Under the pieces are notes generated by a model. That model searched no databases, was not told the DNA's origin, and saw only the letters and a program-made list of their open reading frames with translations. This document shows positions 5,051 to 11,743 of a DNA stretch of 64,000 nt, one piece after another. The number at the start of each line of letters is the position of its first letter. Position 1 is the stretch's first letter. The stretch comes from Petrotoga mobilis SJ95 (GTDB lineage Bacteria > Thermotogota > Thermotogae > Petrotogales > Petrotogaceae), in contig NC_010003.1 of NCBI RefSeq assembly GCF_000018605.1, positions 124,001-188,000 on the forward strand, given 5' to 3'. The translations under genes and the position numbers were made by a program.

Positions 5051-5695
5051 ATGCTAGAAGAGCAATTAAAAAAAGAAGTTGCAGAATTTGCAAAATTAGT
5101 CTGGGACAGAAAGCTAACGGATGGTACGGGTGGAAACATGAGTATAAAATATGGAGAAAAAATATATATCACTCCCACATCGACCATAAAACACTTTCTA
5201 ACTGAGAAAGATATCATCACCATAGATAAAAACGGGAATAAAATCGACGGACTCAAGAAACCTTCTTCAGAAAAAAAAATGCATATAAAAATATACGAAA
5301 AAGCAAATGATGTAAACGCAGTTATTCATGCTCACCCAATGTATGCTACCTCTTTTGCAATTACCTTTGAGAAATTACCTATAAACGCTCTTCCAGAATC
5401 TTCTTTAGTATTGGATCCAATAACCTATATACCATATCAAATGCCTGGAACTCAAGAATTTGCAGATGCCTTCAATGAAGGTTTAGAAAAGGGATCTCGG
5501 GTATTCGTTCTTCAAAACCATGGTGTCACGGTTGCAGGAAAAGACATGAATGAAGCATATGTAAAGTTGGAAACTTTAGAATTTCTCGCTCAAGTTTCAT
5601 TTGTTTCTAAACTCTATTCAAATGTGAACGAAATACCAGAAGAAAAAATAGCTGCATTCAAAGAATTTTTCAGAAGAAACAAGGCGGACCAATGA
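5051..5695 (+). CDS. Class II aldolase (L-fuculose/L-rhamnulose-1-phosphate aldolase type)
   Basis: A 214-residue zinc-dependent class II aldolase of the AraD/FucA family. The start is ATG 5051, placed by an AGGAGG site 5 bases upstream; a longer upstream frame has no such site. The phosphate loop and the catalytic acid are in KPSSEKKMH, the zinc ligands in HAHPMYAT, and the third histidine in NHGVTVAG. Such enzymes split a ketose-1-phosphate into DHAP and an aldehyde. As a rhamnulokinase closes this operon, L-lactaldehyde is the expected product, with rhamnulose-1-P or fuculose-1-P as substrate. It is shorter than E. coli RhaD and closer in size to FucA. No rhamnose or fucose isomerase is in the window. 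Confidence 0.85.
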   Translation: MLEEQLKKEVAEFAKLVWDRKLTDGTGGNMSIKYGEKIYITPTSTIKHFLTEKDIITIDKNGNKIDGLKKPSSEKKMHIKIYEKANDVNAVIHAHPMYATSFAITFEKLPINALPESSLVLDPITYIPYQMPGTQEFADAFNEGLEKGSRVFVLQNHGVTVAGKDMNEAYVKLETLEFLAQVSFVSKLYSNVNEIPEEKIAAFKEFFRRNKADQ

Positions 5696-5753
5696 TAGAG
5701 TTAACTGAGATAAAAGTGAAAAAATAATTTTGATAATTTTGAAGGTGTGAAAA

Positions 5754-7040
5754 ATAAAAGTTAAAATTCCATACGGTAAAGAAGAAAAGATTTTAGATTT
5801 AGATAAAAACTTAAATGTTTCTTTATTAAAAAAGCGTGAATTTAGAGGCTTGGGGGAACTCTTTGACATTGAGATGATGAAATCGTTAGGTCTTCCCTTT
5901 GGTACCCGTTCTCTTTCAACCTTAGCAAAAAGAAAAAAGGATTGTTGCATAGTTATTTCTGACACCACAAGGCCCGTACCAAATTCTCTAATTTTGCCCT
6001 ACATAATCTATGATGTGAGGTTTGCTGGCATTAAAAAGGAGAATATAACAATTTTGATCGCAAATGGTTCACATGAACCGGTTCCAGAAAGTATGTTTGA
6101 AAAATTAGTTGGTAAAGAAGTTTTAGAAGAAAATATAAAAATAATTAATCACGATGCATACGATGATACTCAATTGAAGAAGATTGGAGAAACCTCTTCT
6201 GGTTGCCCTGTTATTGTGAATAAAAAATATTTAGAAGCGGATTTAAAAATCTGTACAGGTTTAATAGAACCCCATTTTATGGCAGGATATTCAGGAGGGA
6301 GAAAATCAATCTGCCCGGGAATAGTTGGCATCGAAACCTTGAAAGTATTTCATGGCGTTAAGGCGATGGGAGATCCAAATTCAAAAAGTTGTCAGTTAGA
6401 AAATAATCCTGTCGATGAGATCGCTAGAGAAGTAGCTTCAATGGCTGGGTGTGATTTCATAGTAAACGTTTCTTTAAACGAGAAAAAAGAAGTTGACGGG
6501 ATTTATGCAGGTGATATCTTTGAAGCTCACGAAGTAGGTTGTAGAATGGTAGCATATACTTCGATAGTGAAAATTAAAGAACCCGTTGATATAGTTATAA
6601 CCTCAAATGGTGGATATCCTTTAGACCAAAACTTTTATCAAACGGTTAAAGGTTTAGTAGAAGCTTCAGAGATTTTAAAACCTGATGGAGTAATAATAAT
6701 GGCTTCAAAATGCGAAAAAGGTATCGGGAAAAAAGAGTTTAAAGAATTGCTTTTAGAAGTAAAAGAAAAAGGAATAAAAGAATTTTTAAAAAGCCATGAT
6801 TCACCAGAAACTTTCAAAAGTGATCAATGGGAGGTACAAAAGTTAACTCAAGTATTAGAGAAAACGAAAAACATTTTCATGTTGTCGTCGCTGGATGATG
6901 AAGAGTACAAATATACTTTTTCAACTAAAATCAATACTTTAGAGGAAGGATTAAAAAAGGCTTTAAAATTAAAAGGGCGCGGCGCCAAGATAGCAGTTAT
7001 ACCTGAAGGGCCCTATGTTGTTGGAAAGATAAAAAATTAA
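5754..7040 (+). CDS. larA: LarA-family nickel-pincer racemase (lactate racemase-like), apparent AUA start
   Basis: A 428-residue member of the LarA (DUF2088) family, racemases or epimerases of 2-hydroxy acids that carry a nickel-pincer nucleotide. Counted from codon 5754, the family's key residues fall at His107 (GSHEPV), His174 and Lys184 (PHFMAGYSGGRK) and His200 (KVFH). These match His108, His174, Lys184 and His200 of the studied Lactiplantibacillus enzyme almost number for number. The reading frame opens with K-V-K-I-P-Y-G-K-E-E, the expected N-terminus, but the codon ahead of it is ATA, 6 bases after GAAGGTG; no ATG, GTG or TTG is in frame before 5850 (TTG), and starting there would lose 32 conserved residues. 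No larB, larC or larE maturation genes are in the window. D/L-lactate is the likely substrate by context. Confidence 0.85.
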   Translation: MKVKIPYGKEEKILDLDKNLNVSLLKKREFRGLGELFDIEMMKSLGLPFGTRSLSTLAKRKKDCCIVISDTTRPVPNSLILPYIIYDVRFAGIKKENITILIANGSHEPVPESMFEKLVGKEVLEENIKIINHDAYDDTQLKKIGETSSGCPVIVNKKYLEADLKICTGLIEPHFMAGYSGGRKSICPGIVGIETLKVFHGVKAMGDPNSKSCQLENNPVDEIAREVASMAGCDFIVNVSLNEKKEVDGIYAGDIFEAHEVGCRMVAYTSIVKIKEPVDIVITSNGGYPLDQNFYQTVKGLVEASEILKPDGVIIMASKCEKGIGKKEFKELLLEVKEKGIKEFLKSHDSPETFKSDQWEVQKLTQVLEKTKNIFMLSSLDDEEYKYTFSTKINTLEEGLKKALKLKGRGAKIAVIPEGPYVVGKIKN

Positions 7041-7056: not shown

Positions 7057-7848
7057 ATGGAAATATGCGTATTAGTCAAACAAGTACCTTCCACTGACAA
7101 GGTACAGATAGATGAGGAAACTGGAACAATGATAAGAAGTGAATTAGAATCCGAACTCAACCCATTGGATATGTACGCAGTCGAAGAAGCGGTGAGAATT
7201 AAAGAAAGCACACCACAAACTAAGATAACGGTTGTAACGATGGGACCTCCTTCAGCAGAATATGCACTAAAAGAAGCAATATCCATGGGATGTGATGAAG
7301 GGGTATTGTTAACCGATAGAAAGTTTGCCGGTGCAGATACCTTAGCAACCGCTTATACATTGAGTCAATATTTAAAAGACAAACATTACGACATTATATT
7401 TGCCGGTGAAAGGGCAACAGATGGAGAAACAGGTCAAGTGGGACCATCCGTTGGAACTCAGTTAGATATTCCTATACTAACCTACGTCAACAAGATAATT
7501 AACATAGCAAACGACACGATAACAGTTCAAAGGGCTGTAGAAGGTGGAAACGAAATTATTCAAACTGGGTTACCGGCTTTAATAACGGTTGTAAAGGAGA
7601 TAAACGAACCCAGGCTACCGAATTTAGAAAACAAACTAAAAGCTAAGAAAAGTAGTATAAAAATAGTAAGTAACCAAGAGTTAAAAATAGAGGAAGGAAA
7701 GATAGGACTTAAAGGATCTCCAACAAGGGTTGTAAAGGTATTCTATCCAAAGATATCAAGAAATGGTGAAAAGGTAATAGTAAAAACTCCACAAGAAGCC
7801 TTAGAAAAAATAACAAACTTTCTAAAAGAAAAAGGCGTGATATCATGA
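7057..7848 (+). CDS. etfB: Electron transfer flavoprotein, beta subunit
   Basis: A 263-residue EtfB. Family marks are the N-terminal MEICVLVKQVPSTDKV, the NPLDMYAVEEAVRI block (about 38-51) and the nucleotide-binding ATDGETGQVGP segment (about 122-132). It forms a heterodimer with the EtfA encoded next and passes electrons to or from the dehydrogenase at 8839. A good AAGGAG site precedes the ATG. In Acetobacterium woodii the homologous EtfAB pairs with an FAD lactate dehydrogenase and couples NAD+ reduction by lactate to ferredoxin oxidation. Whether this copy binds the second, bifurcating FAD I cannot decide by eye. Codon use (ata, gta, aca) differs from that of larA just upstream. Confidence 0.94.
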   Translation: MEICVLVKQVPSTDKVQIDEETGTMIRSELESELNPLDMYAVEEAVRIKESTPQTKITVVTMGPPSAEYALKEAISMGCDEGVLLTDRKFAGADTLATAYTLSQYLKDKHYDIIFAGERATDGETGQVGPSVGTQLDIPILTYVNKIINIANDTITVQRAVEGGNEIIQTGLPALITVVKEINEPRLPNLENKLKAKKSSIKIVSNQELKIEEGKIGLKGSPTRVVKVFYPKISRNGEKVIVKTPQEALEKITNFLKEKGVIS

Positions 7849-8846
7849 ACCAAGAATTCAAAGGTGTATGGACAGTAGCGGAAATAAATGATGGAAAAAT
7901 AGAAACAGTATCGTACGAATTGCTATCATGGGGAAGGGACTTAGCCACAAAATTGAATGTTGAACTATCAAGTGTAGTAATATCAAACAAAGTGGAGAAT
8001 TTAGATAGCCTTATTCAATATGGGGCTGACAACGTATACTATGTTGAAGATAAGAAACTAGAACATTTCTATCCTGATGTACACACAAACATACTCAAAA
8101 AAATGGTAGAAGATTTCAAACCTGAAATAATACTTGCATCTGCAACTACAAGGGGAAGAACTCTCATGCCCGCTCTTGCTGCAAAATTAAACACTGGCTT
8201 AACAGCTGATTGTACGGACTTTGAAATAGAAGAAAAAACAAGATCTCTGATACAAATAAGGCCTGCTATAGGTGGAAACGTGATGGCAAAGATAAAAACA
8301 ATAACAAAACCACAGATGGCTACGGTAAGACCTAAATCGAAACTACCTTTAGCTAAAGACGAAAACAGGAAAGGAAAAATAACAAAAATAGAGTACGATG
8401 AAGAACTCTTTCGATCAAAATATACGTGGATAGAATTTAAAAAAGACGAATCCAGTGTACAACCACTTCAACAAGCTGATGTAATCGTAGCTGGGGGTAA
8501 AGGTTTAAAAAAACCCGAGAACTTCAAATACTTACAAAATCTATCAAAAAAATTAAAGGGCGCAGTTGGGGCAACAAGGGCGGTAGTAGATATGGGATGG
8601 ATAGACTACTCTCACCAAGTGGGACTTTCCGGAAAAACCGTTAGCCCAAAACTGTACATAGCGATTGGAATATCTGGTGCGGTGCAACACTTAGCTGGAA
8701 TATCGTCATCTAAGTATATTATAGCGATTAACAAGGATCCAGAGGCACCGATTTTCAAGATATCTGATCTTGGAATAGTATGTGATGCTTTGGATATACT
8801 GCCGTTGTTAGAAAAAGAAATAAAATCAGGTGATCAAAATGAGTGA
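7845..8846 (+). CDS. etfA: Electron transfer flavoprotein, alpha subunit
   Basis: A 333-residue EtfA, overlapping etfB by 4 bases (ATGA). The C-terminal FAD domain is clear: VAGGKGLKKPENF (about 209-221), GAVGATRAVVDMGW, and the GKTVSPKLYIAIGISGAVQHLAG stretch (about 265-287), whose serine and glutamine/histidine contact FAD. The protein starts directly in the EtfA fold, so it lacks the N-terminal two-[4Fe-4S] ferredoxin domain that some lactate-linked EtfA (LctC) proteins carry. The electron route to a low-potential carrier, if any, would then need an external ferredoxin. It works in the cytoplasm with EtfB and the dehydrogenase encoded by the next gene. Confidence 0.94.
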   Translation: MNQEFKGVWTVAEINDGKIETVSYELLSWGRDLATKLNVELSSVVISNKVENLDSLIQYGADNVYYVEDKKLEHFYPDVHTNILKKMVEDFKPEIILASATTRGRTLMPALAAKLNTGLTADCTDFEIEEKTRSLIQIRPAIGGNVMAKIKTITKPQMATVRPKSKLPLAKDENRKGKITKIEYDEELFRSKYTWIEFKKDESSVQPLQQADVIVAGGKGLKKPENFKYLQNLSKKLKGAVGATRAVVDMGWIDYSHQVGLSGKTVSPKLYIAIGISGAVQHLAGISSSKYIIAINKDPEAPIFKISDLGIVCDALDILPLLEKEIKSGDQNE

Positions 8847-10257
8847 ATACAGAAAGGTAACTACCAATACCGTTGAAAAGTTGAGAAAAATATTAAAAAA
8901 CGATGCACTGTTGATATACGAGGATACAGAAAGTCTAAAAAGTTACTCAAACGATGAATCAGGTGGAGAGTATTACGCACACATGCCAGATGTTGTAGTG
9001 AAACCAGAAACCAAAGAGCAAATTTCCCAAATAATAAAATTGGCAAACGACGAAATGATTCCCATAACACCACGAGGAGCTGGCAGTGGATTGGCTGGTG
9101 CGGATATACCAATATATGGTGGGATAGTAATATCACTTGAGAGAATGAACAGAATAATAGAAATAGATTCAGAAAACTTAGTCGCTGTGGTTGAACCAGG
9201 GGTAGTCACTAACGATCTATGTAGAATTGTATCAGATAAGGGATTATACTACGCGGGATATCCCATGAGTGTAGAAACGAGTTTCATTGGAGGCAACGTT
9301 GCTACCAATGCAGGTGGAAGTAAGGTAATAAAATATGGAAACACAGCTCACCATATATTGGGATTAGAGGTAGTAATGCCTGACGGTGAGATAGTAGAAT
9401 ATGGGGGAAAAAGAAGAAAAGATTCTAGTGGTTACAACCTATTACAACTTTTCATTGGCTCAGAAGGAACGCTTGGAATATTCACAAAGATATACGTGAA
9501 TCTCATACCTCAACCAGGAAAAGTCGTTGACCTGCTGGTTCCCTTTGAAAGTGTTGAAAAAGCTATAAGCAATGTTGCACCCTTAATGGTCGAAACAAAG
9601 AGTTTGCCCTCAGGAATAGAATTCATAGACAAGAAATCCATTTACTATGCTTCAAAATACACTGGAATGAAATTACCCTACCAAGACGAGGTAGAATCGT
9701 ATCTCATAGTTCAATACGAAGCAACGAGCTTGCAAGAAATTGAAGAATTGTACGAAAAAGGTGGAAAAGCCTTACAAAAAAATGGAGCAAAAGACGTATT
9801 CATAGCAGATAACAGAAGTAATTCTGAAAAGATATGGCGTATGAGAAGGAACTGGCTGGAAAGCTTAAAAGCCGTAGATCCGTATGTACCCACAGGAGAT
9901 GTCGTAGTACCAACATCTAAGATACCTGAAATGATGACATACATCAACGAAGTAGCCAACGAGTTTAAAATAGATATTCCTGTGGCAGGACATGCAGCTG
10001 ATGGTAACCTCCATCCTGCACCATTAAAACCAAAAAATCTTCCACCAAATGAATGGAAAACCTTATCGGAAGAGATACTTGGAAAAATAGCGATGAAAGC
10101 TGCCCAAATGGGTGGAGCCATAAGCGGGGAACATGGAGTAGGGTTCATAAAAAAGGAGTTACTAAAAAAGACAAAACCAAAACAGTACAAATGGATGCAA
10201 GAGGTAAAAGAAACGCTTGACCCTAATAACATTATGAACCCAGGGAAGTTATTCTAA
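8839..10257 (+). CDS. FAD-binding 2-hydroxy acid dehydrogenase (GlcD/LctD type)
   Basis: A 472-residue VAO/PCMH-family flavoprotein. The FAD-binding half shows PRGAGSGLAGADIP (about 77-90), NVATNAGGSKVIKYG (about 154-168) and GSEGTLGIFTK; the C-terminal half has the substrate motif GHAADGNLHP (about 383-392) and GAISGEHGVGFIKK. These mark the D-lactate/glycolate dehydrogenase group. The ATG at 8839 is preferred over a GTG at 8830 because AGGTGA lies 6 bases ahead; it overlaps etfA by 8 bases. Tight linkage to etfBA and a lactate racemase points to D-lactate oxidation with EtfAB as electron partner, as in the A. woodii lct operon. Direction in vivo is not known. Confidence 0.9.
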   Translation: MSEYRKVTTNTVEKLRKILKNDALLIYEDTESLKSYSNDESGGEYYAHMPDVVVKPETKEQISQIIKLANDEMIPITPRGAGSGLAGADIPIYGGIVISLERMNRIIEIDSENLVAVVEPGVVTNDLCRIVSDKGLYYAGYPMSVETSFIGGNVATNAGGSKVIKYGNTAHHILGLEVVMPDGEIVEYGGKRRKDSSGYNLLQLFIGSEGTLGIFTKIYVNLIPQPGKVVDLLVPFESVEKAISNVAPLMVETKSLPSGIEFIDKKSIYYASKYTGMKLPYQDEVESYLIVQYEATSLQEIEELYEKGGKALQKNGAKDVFIADNRSNSEKIWRMRRNWLESLKAVDPYVPTGDVVVPTSKIPEMMTYINEVANEFKIDIPVAGHAADGNLHPAPLKPKNLPPNEWKTLSEEILGKIAMKAAQMGGAISGEHGVGFIKKELLKKTKPKQYKWMQEVKETLDPNNIMNPGKLF

Positions 10258-10285
10258 AAAAATTTTCAAAGAAAAGGTGATAATT

Positions 10286-11743
10286 TTGAAATATCTACAC
10301 TTAGCTATCGACCTCGGAGCGTCAGGTGGAAAAGTAATGGCAGGTAACATACAGAATGACAAACTTATCTTGAGTGAAGTAAACCGTTTTTCAAACTCCC
10401 CGGTTGAAATAAATGGAATATCTTATTGGAATATCTTGAATCTGTATGATCATATAATTGAGAGCATTCACATAGCTCAAAAAAATGATCAAAAGATACT
10501 GTCTTTAGGTATAGATAGTTGGGGAGTGGACTTCGGACTTTTAAACAAAAACGGTTATTTAATAAACAATCCAATTCATTACAGAAATATGTTTAAAACG
10601 AATATAATGCAAGAGACAATAGAAAAGGTTGGCAAGAAATGGATATATGAACACTCCCCAACACAGTTTCAACCGTTCAATACATTGTACCAAATATTAG
10701 CCTACCAAAAATATGCTCCAGATTTTGTCAAAATCTCAAAAGACCTATTGATGATCCCTTCGTTGCTAAATTATTTTTTAACAGGTGAAAAAGCTATTGA
10801 TTTTACAATGGCTACAACTACTCAAATTTATAATCATAGAAAAAGAAAATGGGACGAAGAAATAATGAAAAAGTTTGACATTCCTGATATATTACCTGAA
10901 ATAGTCCCTGCTGGTACAAAAATTGGTAAAATAAAAAAAGATGTGTTAAATAATAATTCAAACATAGATGTTATTCTGCCAGCAAGTCATGATACAGGAT
11001 CCGCATATGCCGCAATTGCTTCAGATCCCCAAGATACCTTGTATATTAGTTTAGGAACATGGTGCTTGACTGGCGCTATTATCAAGGAGGTCCCCTACAA
11101 CGAAGAACTCATGGAAAACAATTTAGCCGCAGAGGGTTGTTTGGATGGATCCTTTAGAATATTGGCAAACGTAACAGGGATGTGGTTAATTCAGGGGATT
11201 ATAAAAAGTCTTAACTTGCCGGATAACAGCGATACTTATCAAAAAATTACAGATATGGCACAGAATGCAAAACCATTTTCTTCTTATATCAATGTAGACG
11301 ATCCTTCTTTACAAAACCCTCAAGACATGATTCAAGCAATAATTCAGCAGTCTATAAAAGATAACGATACTGTTTTAAATGAAACATCTCAAGTCATAAG
11401 AACGGCATTGGAAGGAATTGCCTTCAAAGTAAATGAAGTTAAAGAAAAACTATCAAAGATTTTGAATATTGATTTTAAAAGGGTTCATGCGGTAGGTGGA
11501 GGTACCAGGAATAAATTACTCTGTCAATTAATCGCAGATGCAACAGGACTAACTGTTCTAACTGGACCCATTGAAGGAACGGCAGTAGGGAATTTAGTTT
11601 CCCAGCTATATGCCTTACAATTTGTAAAAAACTTTGAAGAGGCACGGAACTTAATAAAAAGATCTTTCGACTTTCAAATTTTTGAACCTAAAGAACATGA
11701 TATCTGGAAAGAGGCTTTTGCTTCTTTTCAAAAGCAGAAATGA
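10286..11743 (+). CDS. rhaB: Rhamnulokinase (FGGY carbohydrate kinase)
   Basis: A 485-residue FGGY kinase. The start is TTG 10286, 6 bases after AAAAGGTG; the in-frame GTG at 10277 lies inside that site. RhaB-type marks are DLGASGGK (about 8-15), the V-N-R-F-S-N segment, DSWGVDFGLL (about 79-88), PASHDTGSA (about 233-241), LGTWCLTG, NVTGMWL and VGGGTRNKLLCQLIADATG near the C-terminus. Rhamnulokinases phosphorylate L-rhamnulose at C1 using ATP, giving the substrate for the aldolase at the head of the operon. The stop codon region also forms TGATATAAT (11741-11749), an extended -10 look-alike that may serve the next gene. A 206-base gap without another gene follows. Confidence 0.9.
   Translation: MKYLHLAIDLGASGGKVMAGNIQNDKLILSEVNRFSNSPVEINGISYWNILNLYDHIIESIHIAQKNDQKILSLGIDSWGVDFGLLNKNGYLINNPIHYRNMFKTNIMQETIEKVGKKWIYEHSPTQFQPFNTLYQILAYQKYAPDFVKISKDLLMIPSLLNYFLTGEKAIDFTMATTTQIYNHRKRKWDEEIMKKFDIPDILPEIVPAGTKIGKIKKDVLNNNSNIDVILPASHDTGSAYAAIASDPQDTLYISLGTWCLTGAIIKEVPYNEELMENNLAAEGCLDGSFRILANVTGMWLIQGIIKSLNLPDNSDTYQKITDMAQNAKPFSSYINVDDPSLQNPQDMIQAIIQQSIKDNDTVLNETSQVIRTALEGIAFKVNEVKEKLSKILNIDFKRVHAVGGGTRNKLLCQLIADATGLTVLTGPIEGTAVGNLVSQLYALQFVKNFEEARNLIKRSFDFQIFEPKEHDIWKEAFASFQKQK

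What the first reader, a model, noticed from the sequence alone, without database searches (positions are those of the whole stretch)
5741..5853. larA appears to start at AUA
Seen: the conserved LarA N-terminus is encoded directly after an ATA at 5754, 6 bases behind GAAGGTG, and the preceding codon in frame is a stop. No ATG, GTG or TTG is in frame until 5850. Counting from 5754 puts the key residues at His107, His174, Lys184 and His200, in step with the studied LarA. Either AUA is used, giving low output, or ATG was recently lost (G to A), or one A too many in the run 5750-5754 hides a GTG start at 5747. The ribosome-binding site fits the AUA best.
Basis: seen in the sequence. Interest (0 to 1): 0.6.

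Follow-up and report, generated by a model that had tools for sequence, protein, structure and literature searches.

The report
Lactate racemase gene lost its ATG
In this bacterium a lactate-racemase gene has lost its normal ATG start, still present in close relatives, and now seems to begin with ATA, a very rare and weak start codon that the same bacteria probably also use for one essential gene; it is a small, recent change in a sugar-use gene cluster that has also lost several genes.

Summary
At 5754 the larA frame begins with ATA behind GAAGGTG; the next in-frame ATG/GTG/TTG is TTG 5850. Of 46 coding-like ORFs in the window, larA alone has coding signal reaching 10 or more codons above its first standard start. 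All five relatives inspected (four same-genus, one same-family) have ATG at the homologous place. Three share the same GAAGGTGTG leader and read A6-TG where the window reads A5-TA. The ATA is therefore derived (G to A, plus one A lost); relatives do not support a hidden GTG. The 428-codon frame is intact, under purifying selection, with the active-site residues. AUA initiation is plausible here: infC, the IF3 gene, has a conserved ATA at its apparent start in 6 of 6 Petrotoga genomes. In print, AUA starts in Staphylococcus aureus gave about 10% of AUG output. The operon has been remodelled: about 4 kb (rhamnose isomerase, rhamnosidase) present in two relatives is missing, an aldehyde dehydrogenase is gone, and an 11-codon stub remains upstream of larA. 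None of 21 family genomes has LarC, so the cofactor source is unclear. Best reading: a recent start-codon downgrade with residual AUA translation, possibly an early step of decay.

The parts
5741..5747 (+). Shine-Dalgarno-like GAAGGTG, unchanged from three sister genomes
   Evidence: anti-SD duplex -8.7 kcal/mol in window and in G001
5748..5750 (+). in-frame stop TGA closing the larA frame upstream
5754..5756 (+). ATA at the place of the ancestral ATG of larA; proposed start codon
   Evidence: alignment with G001, G002, G004, G005, G006
5754..7040 (+). larA: LarA-type 2-hydroxyacid racemase, 428 codons plus stop, intact
   Evidence: Pfam Lar_N 187.7 bits and LarA_C 123.3 bits; NCBIfam NF033504 412.8 bits, below its 460 cut-off; PDB 9eid/2yjg relatives
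5850..5852 (+). TTG, first standard start codon in the larA frame (codon 33); poor candidate
5692..5727 (+). 11-codon stub (MIELTEIKVKK): 5' end of the L-rhamnose isomerase-like gene joined to what looks like the last codons of an aldehyde dehydrogenase gene
5051..5695 (+). class II (fuculose/rhamnulose-phosphate type) aldolase, intact
7057..10257 (+). etfB, etfA and FAD-linked D-lactate/glycolate-type dehydrogenase, intact
10277..11743 (+). rhamnulokinase-like kinase, intact

Best explanation
The larA gene of this lineage recently lost its ATG start by a G-to-A change, and also lost one A in the run just before it. Shown: the ATG is ancestral in the relatives inspected, the coding frame is intact and conserved, the ribosome-binding site is unchanged, and a block of about 4 kb present upstream in two relatives is absent here. 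Inferred: ribosomes still start at the AUA with initiator fMet-tRNA, at a fraction of the former rate and limited by IF3, so the cell makes little LarA. The loss was probably tolerated because the rhamnose-to-lactate route that the operon served has been cut by the deletion. The gene is either a low-dose enzyme or at the first step of decay.
For: ATG at the homologous site in all 5 relatives inspected: G001, G002, G004, G005 and G006. Three have the identical GAAGGTGTG leader with A6-TG against A5-TA here. SD pairing is equal in window and G001, -8.7 kcal/mol. The frame is intact, window-G001 dN/dS 0.10; window-unique changes 23 synonymous/12 nonsynonymous against 28/17 unique to G004. Any neutral period covers at most about 12-16% of the window branch by a rough binomial bound. 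Residues 2-24 hold three confidently predicted strands and Gly8 is invariant in 30 homologs, so the segment before TTG 5850 belongs to the protein. ATA stands at the apparent infC start in 6 of 6 Petrotoga and both g3 genomes, although the codons before it vary TTG/TTT/TAC/TGC. Precedent: passages of PMC13009471 report S. aureus AUA starts at infC, ccpN and, in one lineage only, citZ, with about 10% of AUG reporter output. Deletion: aldolase end to larA is 62 bases here and 4099 in G001 and G002; rhamnose isomerase gives 0 hits in G000.
Against: No expression, ribosome-profiling or peptide data; AUA use is inferred. Purifying selection equally fits a start lost so recently that the gene is simply dead. 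Petrotoga mobilis is listed as using rhamnose (table in PMC7795431, passage read); if the genome is that species (recalled from its size), the sugar route may not be dead and the relaxed-need argument weakens. The downstream genes and the aldolase are intact and conserved, which also argues against a dead operon. G001 and G002 lack the dehydrogenase and keep ATG, so that loss does not by itself lead to start loss.
Confidence: 0.62

Rival explanations
1. Start-loss null allele: larA is no longer translated to any useful extent and is a pseudogene in the making that has not yet gathered further damage.
For: Start codon changed and upstream pathway genes lost; LarB/LarC/LarE not found, so the enzyme may lack its cofactor; one genus member, G003, has no larA at all.
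Against: SD is kept; AUA seems to work at infC in this genus; no stop or frameshift in 428 codons, and at most about 12-16% of the branch can have been neutral.
Confidence: 0.2
2. Sequencing or assembly error: the true sequence has ATG at 5754 (or a four-A run giving GTG 5747).
For: Homopolymer context; the only changed start among the 7 genes compared with sisters; no reads available.
Against: The genome is one contig, 99.62% complete, and only larA among 46 coding-like ORFs in the window looks start-less. Two separate changes from the sisters (A6 to A5 and G to A) would need explaining, and a four-A run would be two As away from all sisters that share the leader.
Confidence: 0.06
3. Translation starts downstream (TTG 5850, ATG 5873 or ATG 5876), giving a LarA shortened by 32 to 41 residues.
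For: TTG 5850 is the first standard start, with GAGG just upstream.
Against: GAGG ends one base before TTG; weak pairing (-5.8, -3.3 and -2.7 kcal/mol). Residues 2-24 hold three strands with pLDDT about 94, Gly8 is invariant in 30 homologs, and the coding signal continues above 5850. The substitution pattern in codons 2-32 is too thin to decide: 5 changed codons against G001 (3 synonymous, 2 not), and 7 of 9 against G004 are nonsynonymous.
Confidence: 0.05
4. The AUA is a selected, IF3-sensitive throttle that keeps LarA low while the rest of the operon is expressed.
For: Same genus appears to use AUA for infC; ccpN in S. aureus is a published AUA throttle (PMC13009471 passages); no sign of decay.
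Against: Present in one lineage only, unlike the conserved infC ATA; ATG in all 5 relatives inspected; occurs together with gene losses.
Confidence: 0.07

Closest known systems
citZ AUA start in the S. aureus NCTC 8325 lineage (PMC13009471, passages)
   Same: A metabolic gene with AUA in one lineage only, behind a Shine-Dalgarno sequence
   Different: There initiation was tested with luciferase fusions; here only sequence evidence
infC (IF3) genes with AUU/AUA/AUC starts (E. coli AUU recalled; S. aureus AUA in PMC13009471)
   Same: AUH start behind an SD; the infC of this genus has ATA at its apparent start
   Different: infC's codon is conserved and thought to be autoregulatory; larA's ATA is new and confined to this genome among those seen
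LarA, nickel-pincer-nucleotide lactate racemase family (PDB 9eid, 2yjg, 5huq)
   Same: Both Pfam domains and the active-site residues His107, His174, Lys184, His200
   Different: Below the NCBIfam LarA equivalog cut-off; no LarB, LarC or LarE genes found in the genome; start codon

Membership tests
Genes with a non-canonical AUA start | No standard start in frame near the conserved N-terminus | tested here: met
Genes with a non-canonical AUA start | Shine-Dalgarno sequence at suitable spacing before the AUA | tested here: met
   GAAGGTG, 6 bases, ATA; -8.7 kcal/mol as in sister
Genes with a non-canonical AUA start | Initiation at the AUA shown by peptide, Ribo-seq or reporter | not testable with these tools
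   no expression data
Conserved regulatory AUA starts (as infC) | AUA conserved among relatives | tested here: not met
   ATG in 5 of 5 relatives inspected
LarA nickel-pincer racemase family | Lar_N and LarA_C domains | tested here: met
   187.7 and 123.3 bits, over cut-offs
LarA nickel-pincer racemase family | Catalytic and cofactor-binding residues (roles recalled: two His, Lys184, His200) | tested here: met
   H107, H174, K184, H200 present, all invariant in 30 homologs
Lactate racemase proper (NCBIfam equivalog) | NCBIfam NF033504 cut-off | tested here: not met
   412.8 bits against 460; substrate therefore open
LarA nickel-pincer racemase family | NPN synthesis genes larB, larC, larE in the genome | tested here: not met
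   LarC 0 of 21 family genomes; LarB and LarE 0 of 6 genus genomes over cut-off. A feature of the system, not of the protein family itself

The most novel reading that the evidence does not exclude
LarA of Petrotogaceae works without a resident LarB/LarC/LarE pathway, taking its nickel-pincer cofactor from outside, by an unknown route, or using another cofactor. In this strain its dose is set by a selected, IF3-sensitive AUA start, tying a racemase to the same control as infC.
Probability: 0.05. Interest if true: 0.65.

Novelty: new member of a known kind. Interest (0 to 1): 0.36.

Why it matters
It is a clean natural case of ATG turning into ATA in an otherwise intact gene, with sister species as before-pictures, in a genus whose IF3 gene itself appears to start with AUA. 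A gene finder limited to standard starts can only place the start at TTG 5850 or later. The wider point of interest is the family-wide pairing of conserved LarA with no detectable cofactor-synthesis genes.

Tried and rejected
Hidden GTG at 5747: rejected because sister leaders have six As and ATG; the window has five. Downstream TTG/ATG start: rejected on weak ribosome-binding pairing, predicted fold and coding signal. Branch-wide pseudogene decay: rejected, no excess of nonsynonymous change. A first alignment of the rhaI start that included G004 used the wrong part of locus L093 and its G004 row is meaningless; it was redone with G001/G002 only. Two first scripts to read infC starts printed nothing (the infC script); searches replaced them. 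A passage search on LarA without LarB/C/E showed no statement about such genomes in PMC11770544, PMC7583248 or PMC11796402 (passages only, plus section 4 of PMC11770544). No paper in the held library has both Petrotoga and lactate racemase.

Full report
What is there. At 5741-5747 stands GAAGGTG, then six bases, then ATA at 5754, from which an open frame of 428 codons runs to the stop at 7038-7040. The next in-frame standard start is TTG 5850. The protein carries Lar_N and LarA_C and matches solved LarA structures, best 9eid at 3.8e-83. Counting from ATA, His107, His174, Lys184 and His200 are present and invariant in 30 aligned homologs (30 of the 85 larA-bearing loci then at hand, chosen by me).

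Is it more than chance? A codon-usage scan found 46 coding-like ORFs in the window; larA was the only one whose coding signal reaches 10 or more codons above the first standard start. Of 80 homologous loci fetched, 64 have a match reaching the N-terminus, and all 64 have a standard start there. Of the 50 aligned from residue 1, 49 have ATG, GTG or TTG at that very codon and one has CTT (16 loci whose match starts at residue 14 or later were left out).

Relatives give the ancestral state. The genus search covered 6 genomes including the window's own; 5 have larA DNA and G003 has none. G001, G002 and G004 read GAAGGTGTG-AAAAAA-TG-A(A/G)AGTT, the window GAAGGTGTG-AAAAA-TA-AAAGTT; G005 also has ATG, behind a different leader. 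G006, another genus of the family, has ATG too. So the ATA arose on the window's branch by G to A, accompanied by loss of one A. A sequencing slip that hides GTG 5747 would need four As, two fewer than in any relative with this leader.

Has the gene decayed? No. Window-G001 dN/dS is 0.10; changes unique to the window are 23 synonymous and 12 nonsynonymous, against 28 and 17 unique to G004. A rough binomial bound allows at most 12-16% of the window branch to have been neutral (it rests on typed-in site numbers and counts, not on a codon model). Changes in codons 2-32 are few and not decisive: 3 synonymous and 2 nonsynonymous codons against G001, 2 and 3 against G002, 2 and 7 against G004. The predicted fold (mean pLDDT 93.5) has strands at residues 2-7, 10-15 and 21-24, all lost if translation began at TTG 5850, and Gly8 is invariant in the 30-row alignment.

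Can AUA work here? The IF3 gene suggests so. In the order-level search 37 of 38 genomes have infC, and loci for 32 were read (the other five with a match had no locus). All six Petrotoga genomes and both genomes of genus g3 read ATA AGC GAT behind an AGGAAGGTGA- or AGGATGGTGA-type SD. The codon two before ATA varies: TTG in five Petrotoga, TTT in G005, TAC and TGC in g3. So a standard start is absent in G005, G007 and G008, and in the other five the TTG lies only three bases behind the AAGG core. Three genomes of genus g11 read ATA, eight of g12 and one of g9 read ATC, with no standard start between the upstream stop and the conserved region. Genomes of g4, g7, g10 and g13 have in-frame ATG or GTG codons just upstream and are ambiguous; g5 (7 genomes) reads ATA AGT ATT behind GGAGGG, four of them without a standard start upstream and three with one further up. 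This infC pattern is an inference from sequence. In print, passages of PMC13009471 report retapamulin-enriched ribosomes at the AUA of S. aureus infC, AUA starts at ccpN and at citZ (the latter only in the NCTC 8325 lineage), and reporter output of about 10% of AUG, up to 30% for ccpN in rich medium. That citZ case is the closest precedent. The pairing of the larA SD with the 16S tail is the same in window and G001 (-8.7 kcal/mol; tail sequence from recall).

The operon around it. In G001 and G002 the order is class II aldolase, L-rhamnose isomerase-like gene, 894-residue rhamnosidase-like gene, a broken aldehyde dehydrogenase start, larA, etfB, etfA, FAD-linked dehydrogenase, rhamnulokinase; in G004 and G005 an intact aldehyde dehydrogenase stands directly before larA. 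The names rhamnose isomerase, rhamnosidase and aldehyde dehydrogenase are my reading of the sequences, not the result of family searches. In the window the aldolase is followed by 36 bases reading MIELTEIKVKK-stop: the isomerase start, then what looks like the dehydrogenase's last codons. Aldolase end to larA is 62 bases here and 4099 in G001 and G002. A 9-base AAAAAATAA occurs both in the isomerase start of G002 and at the dehydrogenase end of G005, a possible deletion repeat; G004 shares only 6 bases. The isomerase gives no hit in the window's genome and the close dehydrogenase occurs only in G004 and G005. The pathway reading is rhamnose to lactaldehyde to L-lactate, racemised by LarA and oxidised by the Etf-linked dehydrogenase; this is inference from gene content. 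Against a dead pathway stand the intact, conserved remaining genes and a table listing P. mobilis as a rhamnose user (PMC7795431).

Cofactor. LarC (PF01969) is found in 0 of 21 family genomes while the control Thermotoga maritima rings; Lar_N is found in 8 of 21, one marginal. LarB and LarE models give nothing over cut-off in 6 of 6 genus genomes. So LarA is kept under selection in a family with no detectable NPN synthesis. I have no explanation that these tools could test.

Verdict. Derived ATG-to-ATA change: shown, short of resequencing. Residual AUA translation at reduced rate: likely, inferred. Whether it is a throttle or the first step of decay: open, with decay or tolerated loss more likely given the operon losses.

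Noticed in passing
L120-L125 (infC of G000-G005), L158, L159: infC of Petrotoga and a sister genus appears to start at ATA behind AGGAAGGTGA/AGGATGGTGA; other genera of the order show ATC, ATA or ATT there.
   Followed up: partly
family-wide: LarA-type genes in 8 of 21 Petrotogaceae genomes but LarC in none, and no LarB or LarE over cut-off in the 6 genus genomes: source of the nickel-pincer cofactor unknown.
   Followed up: partly
window 5692-5727: 11-codon remnant of the L-rhamnose isomerase-like gene overlapping the aldolase stop (ATGA), left by a deletion of about 4 kb or more.
   Followed up: yes
L087 8330-8540, L088 7950-8160: G001 and G002 keep only the first codons of the aldehyde dehydrogenase before larA, an apparently independent loss of the same gene.
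   Followed up: partly
G004:C7:57145, G005:C31:86912, G006:C2:248255 (loci L111, L110, L135): A second LarA-type gene in some relatives; in G004 and G005 it lies about 1 kb from another aldehyde-dehydrogenase-like gene.
   Followed up: no
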